Positions 16,753-52,625 of a stretch of 58,572 bases of DNA are shown piece after piece. The stretch covers positions 1-58,572 of the forward strand of contig NZ_VHKL01000018.1 of the NCBI RefSeq assembly GCF_007474605.1. The letters are read 5' to 3'. Both the position numbers and the translations under genes were made by a program. Positions within the stretch are counted from its first letter, which is position 1. Every line of letters begins with the position of its first letter. A model generated the notes under the pieces. It was not told the origin of the DNA. It did no database searches and saw only the letters and a program-made list of their open reading frames with translations. The DNA is from Rhodoligotrophos appendicifer (GTDB lineage: Bacteria; Pseudomonadota; Alphaproteobacteria; Rhizobiales; Im1).

Positions 16753-17520
16753 TCACCGCGCCGTCATGCCACCATCGACGGGGAGCATCACGCCGGTGAT
16801 CATGCGGGCCTCGTCGCTGGATAGGAAGACGGCGGCGGCGGCGACGTCGTCGAGGCCGATCAGGCGCTGCATGGGCACACCCGCTCCGAACTTCGCGAGG
16901 AAGGCCTCTTCATCGCCGGTTCGCCGGCCGATCTCACGCATCAGGGGGGTATCGATGGGGCCGGGGCAGAGGGCGTTGACGCGGATGGGCACGGGGGCGA
17001 ATTCGAGAGCGATCGCGCCGACGAGGCCGCCGATGCCGTGCTTGGAGGCGGCATAGGCCGTGAAGCCCGCGCGGACCATGATGGACTGGATCGAACCAGT
17101 GAACAGGATCGAGGCATTGGCGCCGGACTGGGCGGCCTCGCGCAGGGCCGGGACCGCGGCCTGGGCCATGAGGAAGGGGCCGGTGAGATTGGCGTCGATC
17201 ACCTTGCGGAACTCGCCCGCCGGGATCGATTCGACGCCGCCCTGCTGCGGCACGCCGGCATTGTTGTGGAGGATGTGCAGGGCGCCGAATTCGGAGACGG
17301 CCCGGGCGACGGCCTCCTGGCACTGGGCCTCGTCGGTGTGGTCGGAGACCAGCCAGCGGGCCTGTCCGCCGAGCTCGCCGGCAACCGCGCTCACCTTGTC
17401 GGCGGCGAGGTCGGTGAGCAGCAGGCGGGCGCCCTCGCGGGCGAAGTAACGCGCGGTGGCGGCGCCGATGCCGGAGCCCGCGCCGGTGATGATGGCGATC
17501 TTGCCGTCGAGACGACCCAT
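16753..17520 (-). CDS. Classical SDR oxidoreductase (FabG-like)
   Basis: This 255-residue NAD(P)-dependent dehydrogenase has TGAGSGIG (12-19), NNAG (about 88-91), the catalytic Ser in ILFTGSIQS, YAASK, and a C-terminal LPVDGGMTAR. It resembles 3-hydroxyacyl-CoA, secondary-alcohol or hydroxysteroid dehydrogenases. It is the last gene of the seven-gene leftward run with the flavoprotein (4-bp gap) and the Liv-type importer, which ties it to the transported compound. ATG 17520 was chosen over a far-upstream frame extension running through the flavoprotein gene. Confidence 0.88.
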   Translation of the reverse strand: MGRLDGKIAIITGAGSGIGAATARYFAREGARLLLTDLAADKVSAVAGELGGQARWLVSDHTDEAQCQEAVARAVSEFGALHILHNNAGVPQQGGVESIPAGEFRKVIDANLTGPFLMAQAAVPALREAAQSGANASILFTGSIQSIMVRAGFTAYAASKHGIGGLVGAIALEFAPVPIRVNALCPGPIDTPLMREIGRRTGDEEAFLAKFGAGVPMQRLIGLDDVAAAAVFLSSDEARMITGVMLPVDGGMTAR

Positions 17521-17524
17521 GAGT

Positions 17525-18982
17525 TCAGCCTTTCGGTTCGAGTTTGGCCGCAGTGCCGCCCGCCAGGCGGCCGGAAGTGAAGGCCCAGCCGAGATGGTGG
17601 CCATGGCCCTCCAGGAGGAGCCCGCCCTGGCCGGTCGAGCCCGCGCCATAAAGGCCGCGGATGGGCGTGCCGTCGCGGCGCAGGATCTCGAGCGTGTCGG
17701 AAACGCGCACGCCGCCATCGGTGTAGACGACGAAGGCATGGAGCGGGCCCAGGGCATGGACGGGGCCGGACGCTGCTTTCAAGGTTTCTGCCAGCGCCTG
17801 GGGCGAGGCGCCGATCCGGGCGGCCAGGGCCGCGGGCGTCTCAGCCTGGTGGCAGAGCTCGGGCCGGGTGCGGCGGTAATCGGCGAGATAGGCGTAAGCG
17901 ACGCCAGGTGCGGTCGAGACGAAATTCGGCCAGCTGTCATAGCGCCGGGCCAGAGCGTCGTCGAAGACGATGTAGGCGGTGTTGTCCGGGGTCGCGGCCA
18001 CCGCGTCGCCGGGGCTGCGGCCGGCCAGCGTCAAGGCCTCGCCGTCGCGGCCGACGAGAAGGGCGCCATTGGCGAAGAGGCTGCGCTCAGGCGCCAGGAC
18101 CGTCGTCATGAACCCCATGACGAAGGGGCGGATCACGCTGGCGGGCATGCGCTCCAGGCCCCAGCGCATGAAGCGGGTGAGGGAAGGGGCTGGCGGAATG
18201 CGCTGGTAGAGGGGCCGGCTGCGGGGCGGCTCGAAGCGCAGGACGGGGCCGAGCGCCAGGTCGCCATTGAGGATCTCGCCGCCGATCGCCTCGACCATGC
18301 GCTGGCAGTCGCCGGTGGCGGTGGGGTTGACGGCGGGGACCGGCCCCAGGGCCTCGGAGACGAGGGCTGCCTTCATCTCGGCATTGCCGCTGTAGTCGCC
18401 GCCGGCAAGGACGATACCGCGACGGGCCGACACGCGAGTGAGGGTGCCTGCGATCTCGGCCTCGATGGCGGTCGCCCGGTCGCCGTCGAAATGGATGCGG
18501 ACGGCCTTGGCGTTGACGCGGATGTCGACGCCGAGAATGCGGGCGCGGCGGGCGAGGTGATAGATATAGGCGCGGGAATTGGGCAGCACATTGTGCATGC
18601 GCGGCTTGGTGTGGGGCGGCTCCTCCATGGGGCCCAGAAACTCGACCCCCATGGCGCGCAGCCAGCGCACCGTCTCGGGCACATTGTCGACGAGGAGCCG
18701 GCGCAGACCGAGATTGTCACGATTGGCCAGGGAGCCGGCGAGCTTGCCCATGTCCTCGAAATGGCTGTCGGGATGATCGACAATGCCGCGGGCGCGCTGA
18801 TGGGCGGTGCCGGTTGCGGTGATGGAGCCCACGGACCAGCGGGTGCTGCCGCCGGGCTCCGGGTTCTTCTCCAGGAGGATCACGTTCGCGCCGGCTTCGG
18901 CTGCCCCCACCGCAGCGGCGAGGCCGGAGCCGCCGCCGCCGACCACCACCACGTCGGCCGTGATCTCGGGCACCGCCGTCAT
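17525..18982 (-). CDS. FAD-dependent oxidoreductase (3-ketosteroid-dehydrogenase/FrdA-like)
   Basis: This 485-residue flavoprotein starts with the FAD motif VVVVGGGGSGLAAAVGAAEA (11-30) and EKNPEPGGSTRWSVGS, and ends with GLYGAGSTGQGGLLLEGHGH, the layout of the FAD_binding_2 family (fumarate reductase, 3-ketosteroid-1-dehydrogenase). It would introduce or reduce a C=C bond next to a carbonyl. Its ATG overlaps the stop of the Liv ATPase gene by 4 bp and the SDR follows after 4 bp, so uptake and oxidation genes are co-transcribed. A tricarballylate or urocanate-type substrate cannot be excluded. Confidence 0.85.
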   Translation of the reverse strand: MTAVPEITADVVVVGGGGSGLAAAVGAAEAGANVILLEKNPEPGGSTRWSVGSITATGTAHQRARGIVDHPDSHFEDMGKLAGSLANRDNLGLRRLLVDNVPETVRWLRAMGVEFLGPMEEPPHTKPRMHNVLPNSRAYIYHLARRARILGVDIRVNAKAVRIHFDGDRATAIEAEIAGTLTRVSARRGIVLAGGDYSGNAEMKAALVSEALGPVPAVNPTATGDCQRMVEAIGGEILNGDLALGPVLRFEPPRSRPLYQRIPPAPSLTRFMRWGLERMPASVIRPFVMGFMTTVLAPERSLFANGALLVGRDGEALTLAGRSPGDAVAATPDNTAYIVFDDALARRYDSWPNFVSTAPGVAYAYLADYRRTRPELCHQAETPAALAARIGASPQALAETLKAASGPVHALGPLHAFVVYTDGGVRVSDTLEILRRDGTPIRGLYGAGSTGQGGLLLEGHGHHLGWAFTSGRLAGGTAAKLEPKG

Positions 18983-46476: not shown

Positions 46477-46950
46477 ATGATCAAGCAGACCATAGCGGCC
46501 GGCGCCATCGCCGCTTCGCTGGCGCTCGCCGGCTGCGCGGGGCCCAACCCCTATCAACCCGCGGCCTGGGGCGGCAACCAGGCCGGTGGAACCGTGGTCG
46601 GGGGCGTCGCAGGCGGACTGCTCGGCGCCGCCGTGGGCGGCACAGGGGCGACGGTGGTCGGGGCCACGCTGGGCGCGGTGCTGGGGAACCAGATCGGCTA
46701 TTCCATGGATGCACAGGCGCAACAGAGGGCCTATTACGCCGCCGAATCAGCCTTCGATTCTGGGCAACCGGTGCAGTGGCGGGACCCGCGCGGCACCTAT
46801 TACGGCGAGGTGGTGCCGTATGACCCCTATTATCGCGGACCGGAGATGTGCCGGGATTTCCTGCATACGATGTTCGTGAACGGACGGCGGGAAGTGGTGC
46901 GGGGCACGGCGTGCGAGATGGCGGACGGCTCCTGGCGGGTCGTGGGCTAG
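46477..46950 (+). CDS. Glycine-zipper lipoprotein (17-kDa surface antigen-like)
   Basis: This 157-residue protein has a lipoprotein signal with lipobox LAGC (Cys20), a glycine-zipper 2TM-type segment (GGTVVGGVAGGLLGAAVGGT, about 37-56, then VVGATLGAVLGNQIGYSMDA), and a C-terminal domain with WRDPRGTYYGEVVPYDPYY and two Cys (MCRDF and GTACEM). This matches the rickettsial 17-kDa antigen/RT0821-like outer-membrane family. GAGGGG lies before ATG 46477. It is divergent from pdxH. Confidence 0.85.
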   Translation: MIKQTIAAGAIAASLALAGCAGPNPYQPAAWGGNQAGGTVVGGVAGGLLGAAVGGTGATVVGATLGAVLGNQIGYSMDAQAQQRAYYAAESAFDSGQPVQWRDPRGTYYGEVVPYDPYYRGPEMCRDFLHTMFVNGRREVVRGTACEMADGSWRVVG

Positions 46951-47227: not shown

Positions 47228-48040
47228 ATGACCGAGCCACAAGCGCTCATGGCCGGAAAACGCGGCCTGATCATGGGAGTGGCGAATAACCGCTCGATCG
47301 CCTGGGGCATCGCCCGGGCCTGCGCCAGCCATGGCGCGGAGCTCGCCTTTTCCTATCAGGGCGAGGCGATCAAGAAGCGCGTCGAGCCCCTGGCGGCGCA
47401 GCTCGGATCGGAACTGGTACTGCCCTGCGACGTGACCGATGGGGCCTCGCTGGACGCGCTGTTCGCGGCGGTCGACGCGAAATGGGGCGGGCTCGACTTC
47501 GTGGTGCACTGCATCGCGTTTTCCGACAAGGACGAGCTCACCGGACGCTATGTCGACACCAGCCTGGACAATTTCACCAAGACGCTGAACATCTCCTGCT
47601 ATTCGTTCACGGCCGTGGCGCAACGGGCCGAGAAGCTGATGAAAAACGGCGGCTCGATGCTCACGCTCACCTATTTCGGCGCCGAGAAGTGGATGCCGCA
47701 TTACAACGTCATGGGCGTCGCCAAGGCCGCGTTGGAGGCCAGCGTGCGGTATATGGCGGCCGATCTCGGCCCGCAGAACATCCGGGTCAACGCCGTCTCG
47801 GCCGGGCCGATCAAGACGCTGGCCGCGTCGGGCATCGGGGATTTCCGCTATATTCTTAAATGGAACGAATATAATTCGCCGTTGCGGCGGACGGTGACCA
47901 TCGAAGAGGTCGGAAACTCGGCCCTGTTCCTGCTCTCCGATCTCGGCAGCGCGGTGACGGGGGAGATCCTGCATGTGGATGCGGGCTATCATATCGTGGG
48001 CATGAAGAACCCCGATGCCCCGGATATCTCGGTGGTCTGA
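47228..48040 (+). CDS. fabI: Enoyl-[acyl-carrier-protein] reductase (FabI)
   Basis: This 270-residue NADH-dependent SDR-type reductase performs the last step of fatty-acid elongation. It has MGVANNRSIAWGIARA (16-31) and the FabI triad Tyr149/Tyr159-x6-Lys166 in LTYFGAEKWMPHYNVMGVAK. The C-terminal GEILHVDAGYHIVGM is typical. fabI near pdxH is a common alphaproteobacterial arrangement. It is followed within 56 bp by the six-gene cluster on the same strand. Confidence 0.95.
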   Translation: MTEPQALMAGKRGLIMGVANNRSIAWGIARACASHGAELAFSYQGEAIKKRVEPLAAQLGSELVLPCDVTDGASLDALFAAVDAKWGGLDFVVHCIAFSDKDELTGRYVDTSLDNFTKTLNISCYSFTAVAQRAEKLMKNGGSMLTLTYFGAEKWMPHYNVMGVAKAALEASVRYMAADLGPQNIRVNAVSAGPIKTLAASGIGDFRYILKWNEYNSPLRRTVTIEEVGNSALFLLSDLGSAVTGEILHVDAGYHIVGMKNPDAPDISVV

Positions 48041-48076: not shown

Positions 48077-48080
48077 TACG

Positions 48081-48095
48081 GCAACTTAAAGTTGC
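48081..48095. promoter_or_regulatory. 15-bp perfect palindrome abutting the first gene of the cluster
   Basis: GCAACTTAAAGTTGC is a perfect palindrome around its central base and is directly followed by the ATG at 48096. A near-copy, GCAACTTAAGATTGC, is found before the fifth gene at 49991, and the match continues into CAT. A TTAA-N7-TAAA sequence (48046-48060) lies just upstream. A shared regulator site is inferred. Confidence 0.55.
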
Positions 48096-48632
48096 ATGAG
48101 TCGCCCAATGCCCACTCCCGCTCGCTCCGCCTCGTCCCATTCGCTCTCTCCTCATGACTGGTCGTATAGGGTCCTCGGCAGCTACCAAAGATCGGATGGA
48201 CATCCCCTCATTCCGACGCCGGATCCGAGCCCTCCCGCGCGCTTTTTCGCGCCATTGGACGCCCCGGAGACGATCCCCAGCTTTCACTTCCTCGGGCCGG
48301 GAGAGTATCTCGATCTGCCGGGGGCGCAGCGGTCGCCCCTGCGGCCTGGGGATTTCGACATCGGCCGGGACCTTTCGGTCAGTTCCTCCCTCGACAGTGT
48401 CAGTGGGTCGTCAGGAAGCTTCCATTTTCCCTGGGGGAAGCTCGCCCTCGGGGGCGGCGCGACGGCGCTGGCCTTGGCGGGCGCGGGTGGTGCAGCCTAT
48501 TTCCTGACCCACGAGCCGGGAACTTCAGGCAGCTCCCTCGAGACCGGCGCTCCAGACAGTCCCGAGGAGCCCAGCGCGCCGGAGTTGGCTTCCCTCGGCG
48601 ACGGCGGAAGCCTTGCCTGGATGACGGCGTAA
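48096..48632 (+). CDS. W-tail membrane protein A (unknown family)
   Basis: This 178-residue protein belongs to no family I recognise. Residues 1-110 are Ser/Pro-rich and probably flexible (PLIPTPDPSPPARFF, LDLPGAQRSPLRPGD). A Phe/Trp-containing juxtamembrane segment (FHFPWGK, 109-115) leads into one Gly/Ala-rich helix (about 116-137, LALGGGATALALAGAGGAAY). The last 41 residues are acidic and Pro-rich and end SLAWMTA with Trp175. There is no signal peptide; the charge pattern predicts N-terminus inside and tail outside. The start is uncertain: the palindrome touches ATG 48096, and ATG 48108 is an alternative. Gene B follows after 3 bp. Confidence 0.7.
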   Translation: MSRPMPTPARSASSHSLSPHDWSYRVLGSYQRSDGHPLIPTPDPSPPARFFAPLDAPETIPSFHFLGPGEYLDLPGAQRSPLRPGDFDIGRDLSVSSSLDSVSGSSGSFHFPWGKLALGGGATALALAGAGGAAYFLTHEPGTSGSSLETGAPDSPEEPSAPELASLGDGGSLAWMTA

Positions 48633-48635
48633 GCC

Positions 48636-49058
48636 ATGGGACTGACGCTCACCGCCTCGCGTCTCAACCTCGCTGAGCAACGCGGCTCTTGGGAGGGTCC
48701 TGGGGCTCACGAATCGCTGCACCCGGTGAGCCGACCCTGGCCCGTGGATGTACGGTTTCTGGAGCTTGACGATGGACCGCTGCGGGGGTTCCAGCGGCCG
48801 GTCAACGCCGTGGACGGATCAGGCTCTCCCAAAGCATGGTGGCTCGGCGGCGGCCTGGGGCTCGTCGCCGGCCTCGCCGCGGGCGTCGGCGGCACACTCG
48901 GAATCGGTGCGCTGATGCAGCGCGCCGAACCCAGAAAGACAGACGACTGGACCACAAGCAGTTTCACCGAGGCGTCTTGGGCGGACCATGGCGCGGAGAC
49001 CGGCGTCCCGGGCGTTCCGACAGGGAACGCCGGAGACATGGCCTGGATCGACAGGTGA
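48636..49058 (+). CDS. W-tail membrane protein B (unknown family)
   Basis: The 140-residue protein has an N-terminal 65 residues with no recognisable motif, then KAWW (66-69), one Gly-rich helix (about 70-94, LGGGLGLVAGLAAGVGGTLG) with GxxxG spacing, and a 47-residue tail with Trp105, Trp115 and Trp137 ending GDMAWIDR. The layout matches gene A and the four following genes. It starts 3 bp after the stop of A, so the two are co-transcribed and probably translationally coupled. Confidence 0.7.
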   Translation: MGLTLTASRLNLAEQRGSWEGPGAHESLHPVSRPWPVDVRFLELDDGPLRGFQRPVNAVDGSGSPKAWWLGGGLGLVAGLAAGVGGTLGIGALMQRAEPRKTDDWTTSSFTEASWADHGAETGVPGVPTGNAGDMAWIDR

Positions 49059-49169
49059 TCCGATGAGCAGCAGGAGACGACCATTCCCAGCAATCCGTTC
49101 TACAGGGCCACTCTTCCCACGCGGGCTCCGAGGATTCCGCCGCTCAACGAGGTCTATGAGAGCCGGGAT

Positions 49170-49400
49170 TTGTATGTCCAGCATCCGTCACTTTGGGGAG
49201 AGCCGCCGGACCTCGCCGGCTTGCCTCGCGCGCAATCCTGGGCGGTGCCGCTTGCGGTCGCCGGTGTCGGAGCCGTTGCCGCGTCCGCGATCGGCCTGGG
49301 GATCTGGGCCGCCGGGCGCAGCCAGCCCCCACCGGAAAGCCCGCCCTGGCCCATCGAGGAAGGGGCGGCATGGCCGCAAGACGCCGATTGGATCGTCTGA
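49170..49400 (+). CDS. W-tail membrane protein C, start uncertain
   Basis: From TTG 49170 this is a 76-residue protein with QSWAVP (22-27), one helix (about 25-48, PLAVAGVGAVAASAIGLGIW) and a 28-residue acidic tail with Trp60, Trp68 and Trp74, ending DADWIV. The frame is open from the stop of gene B, and the upstream residues look coding, but there is no ATG, GTG or TTG between 49059 and 49169. AGGAG at 49072-49076 sits 6 bases before an in-frame ATT at 49083, which would give 105 residues. So either a rare ATT start, a frameshift from ATG 49063, or the short TTG form is used. Confidence 0.6.
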   Translation: MYVQHPSLWGEPPDLAGLPRAQSWAVPLAVAGVGAVAASAIGLGIWAAGRSQPPPESPPWPIEEGAAWPQDADWIV

Positions 49401-49454
49401 CGCGGCAGAAAACAGCGTGTTTTGTCCACAGCAAGGTGCTCAGGGAGAGCCATC

Positions 49455-49970
49455 ATGACCAACCAGACCGTCCCCCCCATTGCCATTCGTCCGGGAGCCG
49501 TCACGGCGGGAGAACTCGCGCCCATGCTGACAGATGCCTATCAGGCGGGCTTCAATCACGGCACCCGAGGGCTGACACCCTCCTTCGGGGTCACGGGGGC
49601 GGAGCTGCGGGTCGGCAACGCGTATCACCTGGCCCTGGACAGGGCTATGAACGATGGCGACGCGCCGGTGACGGCGGTGCGCCATTTCGGGGCGGGCTAT
49701 ATGGCCGGCCTCACGGATATGGAGCGCTTTGAGCCCCAGCTGCCATCCGCCGGCGAGGACCAAGTCCCCTTGCTGCCGGAAAAGAGTTCGTCCTGGTCGC
49801 CGCTTTCGATCGCAGCGGTGGGGGCCGCGGCGGGAAGCGCCGCCACGCTTGCCGTGGGCGGCGGCGTGGTCGCGGCGGTCCTGAGCGGCCAGGCGAATGA
49901 GGGTGCGAGCCCCGATGCCTCGTCTGAGGGGCCCTGGAGTCCCGAACCGCAGACGCAGGCATGGTGGTGA
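49455..49970 (+). CDS. W-tail membrane protein D (unknown family)
   Basis: This 171-residue protein has the most protein-like N-terminal part of the cluster: residues 20-90 look like a small helical domain (LAPMLTDAYQAGFNHG, VGNAYHLALDRAMNDG, AVRHFGAGYMAGLTD). Then come SSWSPLS (112-118), one Gly/Ala-rich helix (about 117-143), SGQ (144-146) and a 25-residue acidic tail ending TQAWW (Trp170-Trp171). GGGAGAG lies before ATG 49455. It is separated from gene C by 54 bp. Confidence 0.75.
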   Translation: MTNQTVPPIAIRPGAVTAGELAPMLTDAYQAGFNHGTRGLTPSFGVTGAELRVGNAYHLALDRAMNDGDAPVTAVRHFGAGYMAGLTDMERFEPQLPSAGEDQVPLLPEKSSSWSPLSIAAVGAAAGSAATLAVGGGVVAAVLSGQANEGASPDASSEGPWSPEPQTQAWW

Positions 49971-49990
49971 AAGACATCAAACAAGAGTTT

Positions 49991-50030
49991 GCAACTTAAG
50001 ATTGCATTAACGCATATGTTGGGATATAGG
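49991..50030 (+). promoter_or_regulatory. Composite promoter before gene E: palindrome-like box, CtrA-type site, sigma-70-like hexamers
   Basis: GCAACTTAAGATTGC (49991-50005) differs from the box at 48081 at two bases. TTAA-N7-TTAAC (49996-50011) is a perfect CtrA full site. TTGCAT (50002-50007) and TATAGG (50025-50030) are separated by 17 bp, as in a -35/-10 pair; the CtrA site overlaps the -35, where CtrA typically acts. The predicted transcript starts just ahead of ATG 50064. Confidence 0.55.
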
Positions 50031-50063
50031 GGGGCCATTGTTCATCCCTTTAGCGAGTTCTTC

Positions 50064-50276
50064 ATGGCCAAAACGACAGCGTCATCATCCAGCTCTCATT
50101 CCTTTGTCACGCCGCTCATCGGCGTCGGCGGCGTCGCGGTGGGAACCCTCCTCGGCTTCGGCATCGGAGCCCTTGCATTCAGCGGACAGCGGAGCACGCC
50201 GCCCGATCCCAATGCCGGCCTGATCAGCCATGCTGATTCCGCAGCCGGCGCCTGGCACGATTCCTATTTTCAGTGA
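50064..50276 (+). CDS. W-tail membrane protein E, minimal form (unknown family)
   Basis: At 70 residues this is the shortest member and shows what is common: a Ser-rich leader (1-13), HSFVTP (12-17), one Gly-rich helix (about 17-39, PLIGVGGVAVGTLLGFGIGA), SGQ (40-42) and a 28-residue tail ending GAWHDSYFQ (Trp64). ATG 50064 fits the promoter at 49991-50030; ATG 50016 lies inside the promoter and is less likely. Essentially the entire protein is the shared anchor module. Confidence 0.7.
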   Translation: MAKTTASSSSSHSFVTPLIGVGGVAVGTLLGFGIGALAFSGQRSTPPDPNAGLISHADSAAGAWHDSYFQ

Positions 50277-50285
50277 CGGCGCACA

Positions 50286-50318
50286 CTCGATCTCCCAACG
50301 GGGTTTTGGGGGATCGAG
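50286..50318 (+). terminator. 11-bp hairpin between genes E and F
   Basis: CTCGATCTCCC (50286-50296) pairs with GGGGGATCGAG (50308-50318) with one G-U pair, around an 11-nt loop. It starts 10 bp after the stop of gene E. No T-tract follows, so it may terminate, attenuate or protect the transcript. Confidence 0.5.
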
Positions 50319-50457
50319 GGCTTCGATCCGCGTGGTGGCCAGGCTGGCCCGCCGTCGCGACGACACTGCGCTCCCGCCGAAGTCTCGGTGGCGGCAGCGA
50401 GAGACCCTCACATTTCGAGCGATTGCTTCCAAACCATTTTGACGGGGAAATTATTCC

Positions 50458-50892
50458 ATGACTCCACCACCCTCGCGCGTACCCACACCCCCACCCCCAC
50501 TGATCCCGACCGGATCACAAGACATCCTTCATCCGGTCGGTCCGGGTCCAGTGGCGTTTCGTCCCGCGCCTCCTCCTCCTCCTCCTCTTCCTCTTTCTGA
50601 CGCGTCGCATGCCGCCGTACCGGCCGATCTCGGGGCAAGTCCCGGCGGACGACACGTCCCCATCGCAGATGCCACTCCTACAACCGTCCATGACGGGGGG
50701 ACAGCATCCTGGAAGTGGGGGCTCGCCGGGGTCGCCGTGGGAAGCCTACTCGGTGCGGGGGTGGCCGTTCCCGCCACACTGGCGCTGACCGGGCAGTTCG
50801 ACCGTCATGGGGAGAGTGCTCCCGCACCCGATCCGATCACCGGATCGGACGGCTGGCTGGGAAAGGATTCCTCAGCGGTCTGGACAGCCTAG
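50458..50892 (+). CDS. W-tail membrane protein F, Pro-rich (unknown family)
   Basis: The 144-residue protein has a Pro-rich N terminus (VPTPPPPLIPTG; residues 38-43 are six Pro, encoded by six CCT triplets at 50569-50586). It continues with ASWKWG (83-88), one Gly/Val-rich helix (about 88-111), TGQ (111-113) and a 31-residue tail ending SAVWTA (Trp142). The GQ just after the helix is shared with D and E. GGGG lies before ATG 50458. It is the last of the six; the next gene is an unrelated acyl-CoA ligase. Confidence 0.7.
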   Translation: MTPPPSRVPTPPPPLIPTGSQDILHPVGPGPVAFRPAPPPPPPLPLSDASHAAVPADLGASPGGRHVPIADATPTTVHDGGTASWKWGLAGVAVGSLLGAGVAVPATLALTGQFDRHGESAPAPDPITGSDGWLGKDSSAVWTA

Positions 50893-50978: not shown

Positions 50979-52625
50979 ATGTTGGGGCTCATGCAGGATT
51001 GGCCATTGCTGATCCACACGATCATGGATCACGCCAGCCGCTATCACGGTACCCAAGAGATCGTATCGCGGACGGTGGAAGGGCCAGTCCATCGCTATAC
51101 CTATGCCGATTGCGCGAAGCGGGCGCGGGCCCTCGCCGATGCCGTGAACACAAAGCTCGGCATCGGCGCAGGCGACATCGTCGCGACCATGGCCTGGAAC
51201 GGGTATCGCCACCTGGAGATCTGGTACGGGCTGATGGGGCTCGGGGCTGTGGTGCATACGCTCAACCCGAGGCTCTTCGCCGACCAGCTCGACTACATCG
51301 TGAACCACGCCGAGGACAAATACATCTTCCTCGAGCTCTCCTTCATCGCCCAGATGGAGGCCCTGCAGGACAAGCTGCCGACGGTCAAAGGCTTCATCAT
51401 CATGACCGATCGGGCACACATGCCCGAAACCAGTTTGCGCAATCCCATCTGCTACGAGGAGCTGATCGCTGCGGGCGACAACACCTTCGCCTGGCCGAAG
51501 CTCGACGAGCAGCAGGCCTGCGGCATCTGCTATACGTCCGGCACCACCGGCAATCCCAAAGGCGTCGTCTATTCCCAGCGGAGCCATGTGCTGCATGCCA
51601 TGGCGATCTGCGCCGGGGACGCGCTGGCGCTGAAATCGACCGACGTGGTCATGCCCGTGGTGCCGATGTTCCATGCCAATGCCTGGTCGCTCGCATTCTC
51701 GGTGCCCATGGCGGGTGCGAAGATGGTGATGCCTGGGGCGAAGATGGACGGGGCCTCGATCTATGAGCTTCTGGACCAGGAGAAGGTGACCGTCACCGCC
51801 GGCGTTCCCACGGTGTGGCTGATGCTGCTGCATCATCTTGAGAAGCATCCCGAGCTCAAGCTCGACCATCTGGAACGGGCGCTGATCGGCGGCTCGGCCT
51901 GCCCGGAGGCGATGATGGCGGCCTTCGAAAAGAAATACGACACCAAGGTCGTGCATGCCTGGGGCATGACCGAGATGAGTCCCATCGGCTCGATCGGCAA
52001 TCGTTCGGGGGCGACCGCCGATCTCGATGCGGAGGCGTGGTGGCCCCTGCAGCTGAAGCAGGGCCGGCCGCCCTTTACGGTCGAGATGGAAATCACGGAC
52101 GATCAGGGGCAGGTGCTGCCCAATGACGGCAAGACCTTTGGCCATCTGGTGGTGCGGGGAGCGGCGACGGCGCGGGAATATTACAAGGGCGAGGGCGGCA
52201 AGATCCTCGACGACAAAGGCTATTTCGACACCGGCGACGTGGCGACGATCGACGCGTATGGCTTCATGCAGATCACCGACCGGGCCAAGGACGTGATCAA
52301 GTCGGGCGGCGAATGGATCTCCTCCATCGACCTGGAGAATGCCGCCGTCGGGCATCCGGCGGTGGCGGAGGCTGCCGTGATCGGCATCACGCACCCCAAA
52401 TGGGACGAGCGGCCCTTGCTGGTGCTGGTGAAGAAGCCGGGAGCGGAGGTCAGCAAAGAGGAGGTGCTGGGCTTCCTCAAGGACAAGGTGGTCAAATGGT
52501 GGCTGCCGGATGACGTGGTGTTCGTGGAGGAAATCCCGCATACGGCCACGGGAAAGATCTCGAAGCTGACGCTGCGGCAACAATTTGCCGGCTACGTGCT
52601 GCCGGGGGCGGAGGCGGCGGAGTAG
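50979..52625 (+). CDS. Acyl-CoA ligase, DmdB/medium-chain type
   Basis: This 548-residue ANL enzyme has P-loop [20 protein letters not shown] (about 182-201), [15 protein letters not shown] (about 325-339), the hinge [20 protein letters not shown] and the catalytic Lys in [14 protein letters not shown]. It follows the branch that includes 3-methylmercaptopropionyl-CoA ligase (DmdB) and medium/long-chain fatty-acid ligases. GGAGG lies 10 bases before ATG 50979. It appears monocistronic between the six-gene cluster and repeats. Confidence 0.9.

What the first reader, a model, noticed from the sequence alone, without database searches (positions are those of the whole stretch)
48096..50892. Six consecutive short proteins share an undescribed 'variable head - SW/F - Gly-rich helix - acidic Trp-ended tail' architecture
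Directly visible: all six genes encode one glycine-rich helix placed close to the C terminus. Each has a Trp or Phe just before it (FPW, KAWW, QSW, SSW, HSF, ASWKW). Each ends in a 28-47-residue, mostly acidic, Pro-rich tail with Trp at or near the end (SLAWMTA, DMAWIDR, DADWIV, TQAWW, GAWHDSYFQ, SAVWTA). Three have [ST]GQ immediately after the helix. N-terminal parts are unrelated, and member E is almost only the shared module. None has a signal peptide. This is the pattern of a sorting or assembly module attached to different cargo, or a multi-subunit membrane structure. I know of no family of this kind; PEP-CTERM and similar sorting tags have the helix followed by a short basic end, which does not fit.
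Basis: partly seen in the sequence, partly recalled or inferred. Interest (0 to 1): 0.93.

Follow-up and report, generated by a model that had tools for sequence, protein, structure and literature searches.

The report
Fast-evolving Trp-tailed small protein regulon
Six neighbouring small bacterial genes belong to a fast-changing, so far undescribed protein family that shares a DNA control site and an acidic, tryptophan-tipped tail, and may be cargo of a type I export machine that appears to carry the same control site.

Summary
Six short ORFs between fabI and an acyl-CoA synthetase encode a Gly/Ala-rich helix plus a 28-46-residue acidic tail with Trp in the last 10 residues. Two sister species keep the locus with 4 and 1 such genes; Trp is kept in 4 of 5. 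The six match no Pfam, NCBIfam, PHROG or PADLOC family. A profile matches 3 of 397 genomes of the order, all one genus.

New: each inferred transcription unit there begins with a 17-bp palindrome (TGCAACTTnAAGTTGCA). It also precedes orphan genes elsewhere, some without the helix, whose products keep an acidic, Lys/Arg-poor tail, mostly with an aromatic end. In the own genome it precedes a PrtD-type type I secretion ABC gene (borderline site in the second species, none in the third).

Best reading: co-regulated cargo of this T1SS, the tail being an uncleaved export signal and the helix a membrane-active or surface-anchoring part, working like but not belonging to Caulobacter Cdz. Locus, tail, Cys depletion and palindrome are shown; export and function are inferred. 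T3SS and T6SS markers are absent. 'Sorting module on different cargo' is partly supported.

The parts
48080..48096 (.). 17-bp palindrome GGCAACTTAAAGTTGCA at the head of genes A-D (its last base is the A of A's annotated ATG)
   Evidence: leave-one-out score 24.3; maximum 13.8 in 595 random 350-bp windows
48096..48632 (+). gene A, 178 aa, Ser/Pro-rich head, Gly-rich helix 116-134, tail ends SLAWMTA; true start uncertain (no ribosome-binding site seen by eye; ATG 48108 possible)
48636..49058 (+). gene B, 140 aa, helix 76-94 (three GxxxG), tail ends DMAWIDR
49089..49400 (+). gene C, 103 aa if it starts at ATT 49089 (AGGAG upstream), or 76 aa from TTG 49170; tail ends DADWIV
   Evidence: similarity to S4 of the sister species reaches upstream of 49170
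49455..49970 (+). gene D, 171 aa, head without recognisable family, helix 125-143, SGQ, tail ends TQAWW
49990..50006 (.). second palindrome TGCAACTTAAGATTGCA, head of genes E-F
   Evidence: leave-one-out score 27.0, 57 nt before E
50064..50276 (+). gene E, 70 aa, almost only helix and tail, SGQ, ends GAWHDSYFQ
50458..50892 (+). gene F, 144 aa, Pro-rich head, helix 92-110, TGQ, ends SAVWTA
   Evidence: codon support weakest of the six; missed by the family profile although it is one of its rows
47228..48040 (+). fabI-type enoyl-ACP reductase (SDR), left flank conserved in the sister species (name recalled from sequence, not from a family search)
50979..52625 (+). acyl-CoA synthetase, right flank conserved in the sister species (name recalled from sequence)

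Best explanation
The six genes are members of a genus-restricted, fast-evolving regulon of small, cysteine-poor proteins. A dimeric regulator probably binds the 17-bp palindrome at the head of each transcription unit and switches them on or off together with a PrtD-type type I secretion ABC transporter and its HlyD-type adaptor. The common acidic, Lys/Arg-poor C-terminal tail with an aromatic end (Trp in most helix members) would be the uncleaved signal read by that exporter. After export, the Gly-rich helix would insert in a membrane or self-associate on the cell surface; the variable heads are the cargo. Shown: ORFs, locus conservation, tail conservation, Cys depletion, palindrome at the heads of the locus's units, palindrome at the exporter in the own genome. 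Inferred: that the palindrome is an operator, that the exporter carries these proteins, and what they do outside.
For: Syntenic members in both sister species. Trp in last 10 residues in 4 of 5 syntenic genes against 12.9% of 225 control proteins (P 0.0012). Last 28 residues: mean Lys+Arg 0.5 in the 16 helix members against 3.4 in controls; net acidic in 16 of 16 helix members and 7 of 7 picked palindrome-neighbour proteins. Cys 6 observed against 27 expected in these 23 proteins. Palindrome with leave-one-out score 22.7-28.9 at all 5 inferred unit heads of the locus in three species; no site above 16 in 134 kb of 8 control loci. Among 25 further sites of score 20 or more, 5 precede an ORF with such a tail (one doubtful) against 88 of 3000 random places. 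The palindrome (25.4) lies 155 nt before the T1SS ABC gene in the own genome. That gene product is PrtD-type (TIGR01842, 659 bits, cut-off 510; the match starts at residue 12, so there is no room for an N-terminal peptidase), and the G001 adaptor matches TIGR01843 (367 bits, cut-off 209). Of four genomes searched, the three with the family have mutual orthologues (76% and 84% to the G001 query), the sister genus only 38%. Literature: HasD-type exporters lack C39/CLD domains and PrtD shows a basic bowl (PMC8277102, passages); C-terminal T1SS signals of proteases and TliA end in hydrophobic residues after an acidic one (PMC2642768, passages).
Against: The exporter is not at the locus. Its palindrome is clear only in G000, borderline in G002 (13.9; null maximum 13.8) and absent in G001 (5.0). 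20 of 25 non-training sites of score 20 or more have no such ORF, and sites below 15 have one in 3 of 38. Genome-wide the pattern is only modestly above its reversed control (33/25, 19/9, 33/22). S6 and Q3 have no good site within 350 nt and the L034 gene's strong site is about 340 nt upstream. S3 and Q3 lack Trp in the last 10, and only 1 of 7 picked non-helix proteins has it. Tips are Trp-centred rather than the classical acidic-plus-hydrophobics, except C (DWIV). No RTX repeats (HasA lacks them too). Export cannot be tested here.
Confidence: 0.42

Rival explanations
1. Small inner-membrane proteins, N-in/C-out, of a stress or envelope regulon: the helix anchors them, the acidic tail lies in the periplasm, and there is no export. 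The palindrome regulates them with unrelated genes, and the T1SS site is incidental.
For: One helix of transmembrane length in each (model of S1 shows one helix 14-36 at low confidence, mean pLDDT 65). The exporter site is borderline or missing in two of three species. Acidic tails suit a periplasmic side.
Against: Does not explain why palindrome-linked proteins without a hydrophobic segment (L163, L174, L176, L177 genes; peak 19-residue hydropathy at most 0.89) also have an acidic tail with an aromatic in the last 7 residues and almost no Cys; these were picked by eye, so this counts only in part.
Confidence: 0.27
2. Effectors of another secretion system (T3SS, T4SS, T6SS) with a C-terminal signal.
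For: Orphan, disordered or coiled-coil-like proteins with a shared operator and fast turnover look like effector sets; VirB4-type genes exist in all four genomes searched.
Against: T3SS/flagellar ATPase C domain absent in G000, G001, G002; T6SS VipB absent in all four genomes. The two VirB4 loci whose genes were listed (L191 in G000, L193 in G001) look like Trb-type conjugation (names recalled), and none of the 8 VirB4 loci carries the palindrome (best score 11.8). T4BSS genes were not tested.
Confidence: 0.08
3. A Cdz-like contact-killing system proper: two-peptide glycine-zipper bacteriocins with cognate immunity.
For: Small glycine-zipper proteins plus a T1SS in an alphaproteobacterium; 13 of 16 have GxxxG around the helix.
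Against: Helix is C-proximal in most, no N-terminal leader next to a mature zipper, and no exporter or recognisable immunity gene at the locus.
Confidence: 0.12

Closest known systems
Cdz (CdzC/CdzD with CdzAB) of Caulobacter crescentus (PMC5380434, abstract start and passages read)
   Same: Small proteins with a Gly-rich, GxxxG-containing hydrophobic stretch and a polar C-terminal end; alphaproteobacterial; T1SS involved there, proposed here.
   Different: Cdz-like proteins have a predicted leader ending in G[G/A/S] and sit in one cluster with exporter and immunity gene. Here the helix is near the C terminus behind unrelated heads, the tail is acidic and Trp-tipped, the candidate exporter lies elsewhere, and no immunity gene is seen.
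PrtD/HasD-type T1SS substrates with uncleaved C-terminal signal (HasA, PrtG, TliA; PMC8277102 and PMC2642768, passages read)
   Same: No N-terminal signal, C-terminal acidic region with hydrophobic or aromatic tip, low Cys (low Cys of such substrates is recalled), PrtD-type exporter in the genome.
   Different: Many small unrelated proteins spread over the genome under one palindrome; Trp-centred tip; a membrane helix directly before the tail; no RTX repeats (as in HasA).
PEP-CTERM and similar C-terminal sorting tags (recalled)
   Same: Hydrophobic helix near the C terminus of otherwise unrelated proteins.
   Different: Those end in a short basic cluster after the helix; here the tail is long and acidic, and no NCBIfam model matches above its cut-off.
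Gly-zipper_Omp / Rick_17kDa_Anti (Pfam PF13488, PF05433)
   Same: Glycine-zipper stretch; one true member lies 1.1 kb upstream (46477-46950).
   Different: None of the six matches these models.

Membership tests
T1SS substrate with C-terminal signal (PrtD/HasD type) | no N-terminal signal peptide | tested here: inconclusive
   Hydropathy only, no dedicated predictor: 11 of 16 have the helix starting at residue 37 or later; in the short ones (E, S1, Q1, Q3, A7) the helix itself lies near the N terminus.
T1SS substrate with C-terminal signal (PrtD/HasD type) | acidic C-terminal region ending in hydrophobic/aromatic residues | tested here: met
   16 of 16 net acidic, 14 of 16 Trp in last 10 (not all independent; 4 of 5 in the syntenic set), Lys+Arg 0.5 against 3.4 in 225 controls.
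T1SS substrate with C-terminal signal (PrtD/HasD type) | cognate PrtD-type ABC exporter and HlyD adaptor present and linked | tested here: inconclusive
   ABC orthologues in all three genomes, family models met (adaptor tested in G001 only), not adjacent; linked by the palindrome in G000, borderline in G002, not in G001.
T1SS substrate with C-terminal signal (PrtD/HasD type) | secreted in an exporter-dependent way | not testable with these tools
   needs an experiment
Cdz-like glycine-zipper bacteriocin | 60-151 residues, glycine-zipper motif, short polar C-terminal region | tested here: met
   12 of 16 within 60-151 aa; 13 of 16 with GxxxG around the helix; polar tail of 23-67 aa in 15 of 16, 132 in S6.
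Cdz-like glycine-zipper bacteriocin | N-terminal leader ending in G[G/A/S] before a mature zipper region | tested here: not met
   G[G/A/S] pairs occur in 11 of 16 within residues 11-40, 5 have none, and the helix starts only at residue 37-125 in 11 of 16; no leader predictor was run.
Cdz-like glycine-zipper bacteriocin | exporter and immunity gene in the same cluster | tested here: not met
   Locus lies between fabI and acyl-CoA synthetase with no transporter.
PEP-CTERM-like sorting tag | helix followed by short basic C terminus; matches a TIGRFAM/NCBIfam tag model | tested here: not met
   Tails acidic; no NCBIfam match above cut-off for A-F, S2, S5, S6, Q2.
T3SS or T6SS effector | the secretion system is present in the genome | tested here: not met
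   One marker family each: PF18269 absent in G000-G002; PF05943 absent in G000-G003.

The most novel reading that the evidence does not exclude
A type I secretion machine serving a dispersed, operator-controlled and rapidly turning-over repertoire (over 20 candidate cargo proteins seen across three species), recognised by a new acidic, aromatic- and mostly Trp-tipped C-terminal signal and in many cases carrying a glycine-zipper membrane helix: a T1SS used the way other bacteria use effector-injecting systems.
Probability: 0.27. Interest if true: 0.85.

Novelty: new variant of a known kind. Interest (0 to 1): 0.6.

Why it matters
T1SS cargos are usually few and encoded beside their exporter. 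A palindrome-defined set of small, unrelated, fast-evolving cargos would widen that picture, give a simple tag (the tail) to look for T1SS cargo by sequence, and offer a new class of surface or membrane-active small proteins in an alphaproteobacterial genus. Even if export is wrong, a conserved locus whose proteins diverge almost beyond recognition while keeping control site and tail is a clear case of a rapidly evolving orphan family.

Tried and rejected
T3SS, T6SS and VirB-type T4SS delivery: tested by one family each and rejected or not supported. Search with protein A in 61 genomes: best match outside the own gene E 0.025; one looked at (L012) is unrelated. The -24/-12 sigma-54 reading of the palindrome: spacing wrong by 2 (from the sequence and a recalled consensus, no call). 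VjbR-type regulator: paper search gave nothing useful. Cdz membership: rejected on leader and cluster content. PDB sequence search with D and with the L163 gene product: nothing significant. Pfam with 9 further proteins: nothing above cut-off; weak coiled-coil-type matches to the L177 product, best E 0.004. Plasmid search with S2: no match. AlphaFold model of S1 (first row of A3): one helix and an unstructured tail at low confidence; no fold search was run. ORF at window 17038-17580: rejected as a likely non-coding frame. The organism could not be named; the one genome-contig scan kept 80 of 591 relatives of the acyl-CoA synthetase, none above 70% identity, and says that the own genome's records may be left out; these 80 loci served only as ORF controls and were not searched for the family by synteny.

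Selection effects: Q2 (L148) and S5 (L170) were found by a filter that demanded a Trp in the last 12 residues, so their Trp is not independent; S6, Q3 and A7 were picked by eye from listings, and the seven other proteins (L177, L174, L176, L163, L034, L173, L216) were picked by eye as orphan ORFs near a palindrome. Independent tests are the five syntenic genes and the scan of 85 sites, which used all sites counted. Two of the seven sites used to train the score came from the motif search itself. The family profile scored at most 13 first-look candidates per genome and misses F, one of its own rows; members this divergent in other genera could be missed.
Full report
OBSERVATION. A filter for this architecture passes 33 of 9632 ORFs in 1.34 Mb of control loci (0.069 per 2.8 kb) against six here. 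Codon scores favour the annotated frame in all six, narrowly in F. Two start sites are odd: A's ATG overlaps a palindrome and shows no ribosome-binding site, and C has no ATG; ATT 49089 behind AGGAG is the likeliest start, supported by similarity of C's upstream part to gene S4 of a sister species.

HOMOLOGUES. A search with protein A finds nothing convincing outside its own gene in 61 genomes, but synteny does. Two genomes of the same genus (G001, G002) keep fabI and the acyl-CoA synthetase around the place. G002 has four ORFs of the same architecture (S1-S4), G001 one (Q1). In the sister genus (G003) fabI and the synthetase are not adjacent, and I saw nothing similar in the ORF lists beside them. 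A profile of the 11 modules (A2) finds 3 of 397 genomes of the order, all this genus, 1 of 141 genera; it scored at most 13 candidates per genome there and misses F, one of its own rows. Trp in the last ten residues is kept in 4 of 5 syntenic genes (control 12.9% of 225 proteins, P 0.0012). The six match no Pfam, PHROG, NCBIfam or PADLOC family convincingly.

PALINDROME. A 17-bp palindrome, consensus TGCAACTTnAAGTTGCA, stands before A and E in the window, before S1 and S3 in G002 and before Q1 in G001. Leave-one-out scores are 22.7-28.9; the maximum in 595 random 350-bp windows is 13.8, and none exceeds 16 in 134 kb of 8 control loci. B, C, D, F, S2 and S4 have none of their own, so the inferred units are A-D, E-F, S1-S2, S3-S4 and Q1. 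Genome-wide there are 33, 19 and 33 sites within 3 mismatches in G000, G001 and G002, against 25, 9 and 22 for the reversed control pattern, and 17 against 14 in G003, so most weak sites are background.

REGULON. All 85 sites of G000-G002 were examined by script. Of the 13 with score 24 or more, 7 precede, with a start within 220 nt, an ORF with an acidic, Lys/Arg-poor, aromatic-ended tail; 6 of these 7 are training sites. For scores 20-24 it is 4 of 19, for 15-20 3 of 15, below 15 3 of 38; random places give 88 of 3000 (2.9%). Without the training sites, 5 of 25 sites of score 20 or more are positive, one of them doubtful, and 20 are not. The dispersed genes include further helix-tail proteins (L148, L170, L167) and proteins without a hydrophobic segment (L163, L174, L177; L176 narrowly fails the tail filter; L173 has a weaker site of 16.3; L216 lacks the aromatic end). 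L172 982-1656 (helix, coiled-coil-like part and His-rich tail ending HDAVWTGA) and L208 16993-17247 have the tail but no good site within 350 nt. By eye, L167 in G000 and L208 16993 in G001 sit at the same place beside the same large gene (an aminoacyl-tRNA synthetase, recalled), and L034 in G000 and L259 in G001 beside the same neighbour: position kept while sequence diverges. Tails of the 16 helix proteins and 7 others are net acidic without exception; an aromatic in the last 7 residues is found in 14 of 16 and 6 of 7 (control 28.9%), Trp in the last 10 in 14 of 16 and 1 of 7. Cys is 6 against 27 expected, none in the window's six. The 23 proteins were not all chosen blindly; see the selection note in Tried and rejected.

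EXPORTER. One of the 33 sites in the own genome (score 25.4) lies 155 nt before a PrtD-type T1SS ABC gene, followed by what reads as a HlyD-type adaptor (the G000 adaptor was not run against families). The ABC protein scores 659 bits against a cut-off of 510 for TIGR01842, and the G001 adaptor 367 against 209 for TIGR01843. Of the four genomes searched, the three with the family have orthologues (76% and 84% identity to the G001 query over its first 570-odd residues); the best in the sister genus is 38%. In G002 the site is borderline (13.9) and in G001 absent (5.0), though the surrounding promoter block aligns. Marker families for T3SS and T6SS are absent. VirB4 genes exist, but the two loci whose genes I listed look Trb-like and none of the eight carries the palindrome.

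MECHANISM. The most economical reading is T1SS cargo: HasD-type exporters lack C39/CLD domains, PrtD shows a basic bowl (PMC8277102, passages), and C-terminal T1SS signals of proteases and TliA end in hydrophobic residues behind an acidic one (PMC2642768, passages). The shared tail, the lack of Cys, and acidic aromatic-ended tails on helix-free co-located proteins fit this; an anchoring role alone would not explain the latter. The glycine-zipper helix (GxxxG in 13 of 16) suggests membrane insertion or self-association outside, as in Caulobacter Cdz (PMC5380434, passages), but the leader and gene-cluster features of Cdz are not met. A structure model of S1 shows one helix and an open tail at low confidence. 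Export and activity are inference.

LITERATURE STATUS. Paper searches on T1SS, C-terminal signals and glycine zippers (open-licence PMC library) listed no paper whose title or abstract start describes such a family; this is not proof of absence. PMC5380434, PMC8277102, PMC3034196 and PMC2642768 were seen as passages, others only as search listings. The organism could not be named.

Noticed in passing
window 46477-46950: 17-kDa-antigen-like glycine-zipper protein (Pfam PF13488, PF05433 above cut-off) just upstream of fabI; unrelated to the six but easily confused with them.
   Followed up: partly
window 49058-49100: Gene C has no ATG; AGGAG followed by ATT in the open frame suggests a rare ATT start or an assembly error.
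   Followed up: partly
L209 14127-14201: Three palindrome-like sites in tandem (scores 15.3, 21.6, 13.2) upstream of a 209-aa orphan ORF in G001.
   Followed up: no
L031 6855-7313: S2 has an amphipathic, coiled-coil-like stretch directly before the Gly-rich helix; L172 982-1656 has one directly after it (by eye).
   Followed up: no
L169 3374-3390: High-scoring palindrome (28.1) between a glmU-like gene (recalled) and a 185-aa membrane protein in G002 without the acidic tail: the palindrome may control more than the tail proteins.
   Followed up: no
L163 3198-3731: 177-aa orphan protein behind a palindrome in the own genome, no Pfam or PDB match, tail with EEDLDD and FF near the end; possible helix-free cargo.
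   Followed up: partly
L031, L170, L172 tails against window 48096-50892: Tails in G002 are rich in His and Asp (for example HHTSDDTSHKDDFWPH), those in G000 in Pro and Glu: tail composition differs by species (by eye).
   Followed up: no
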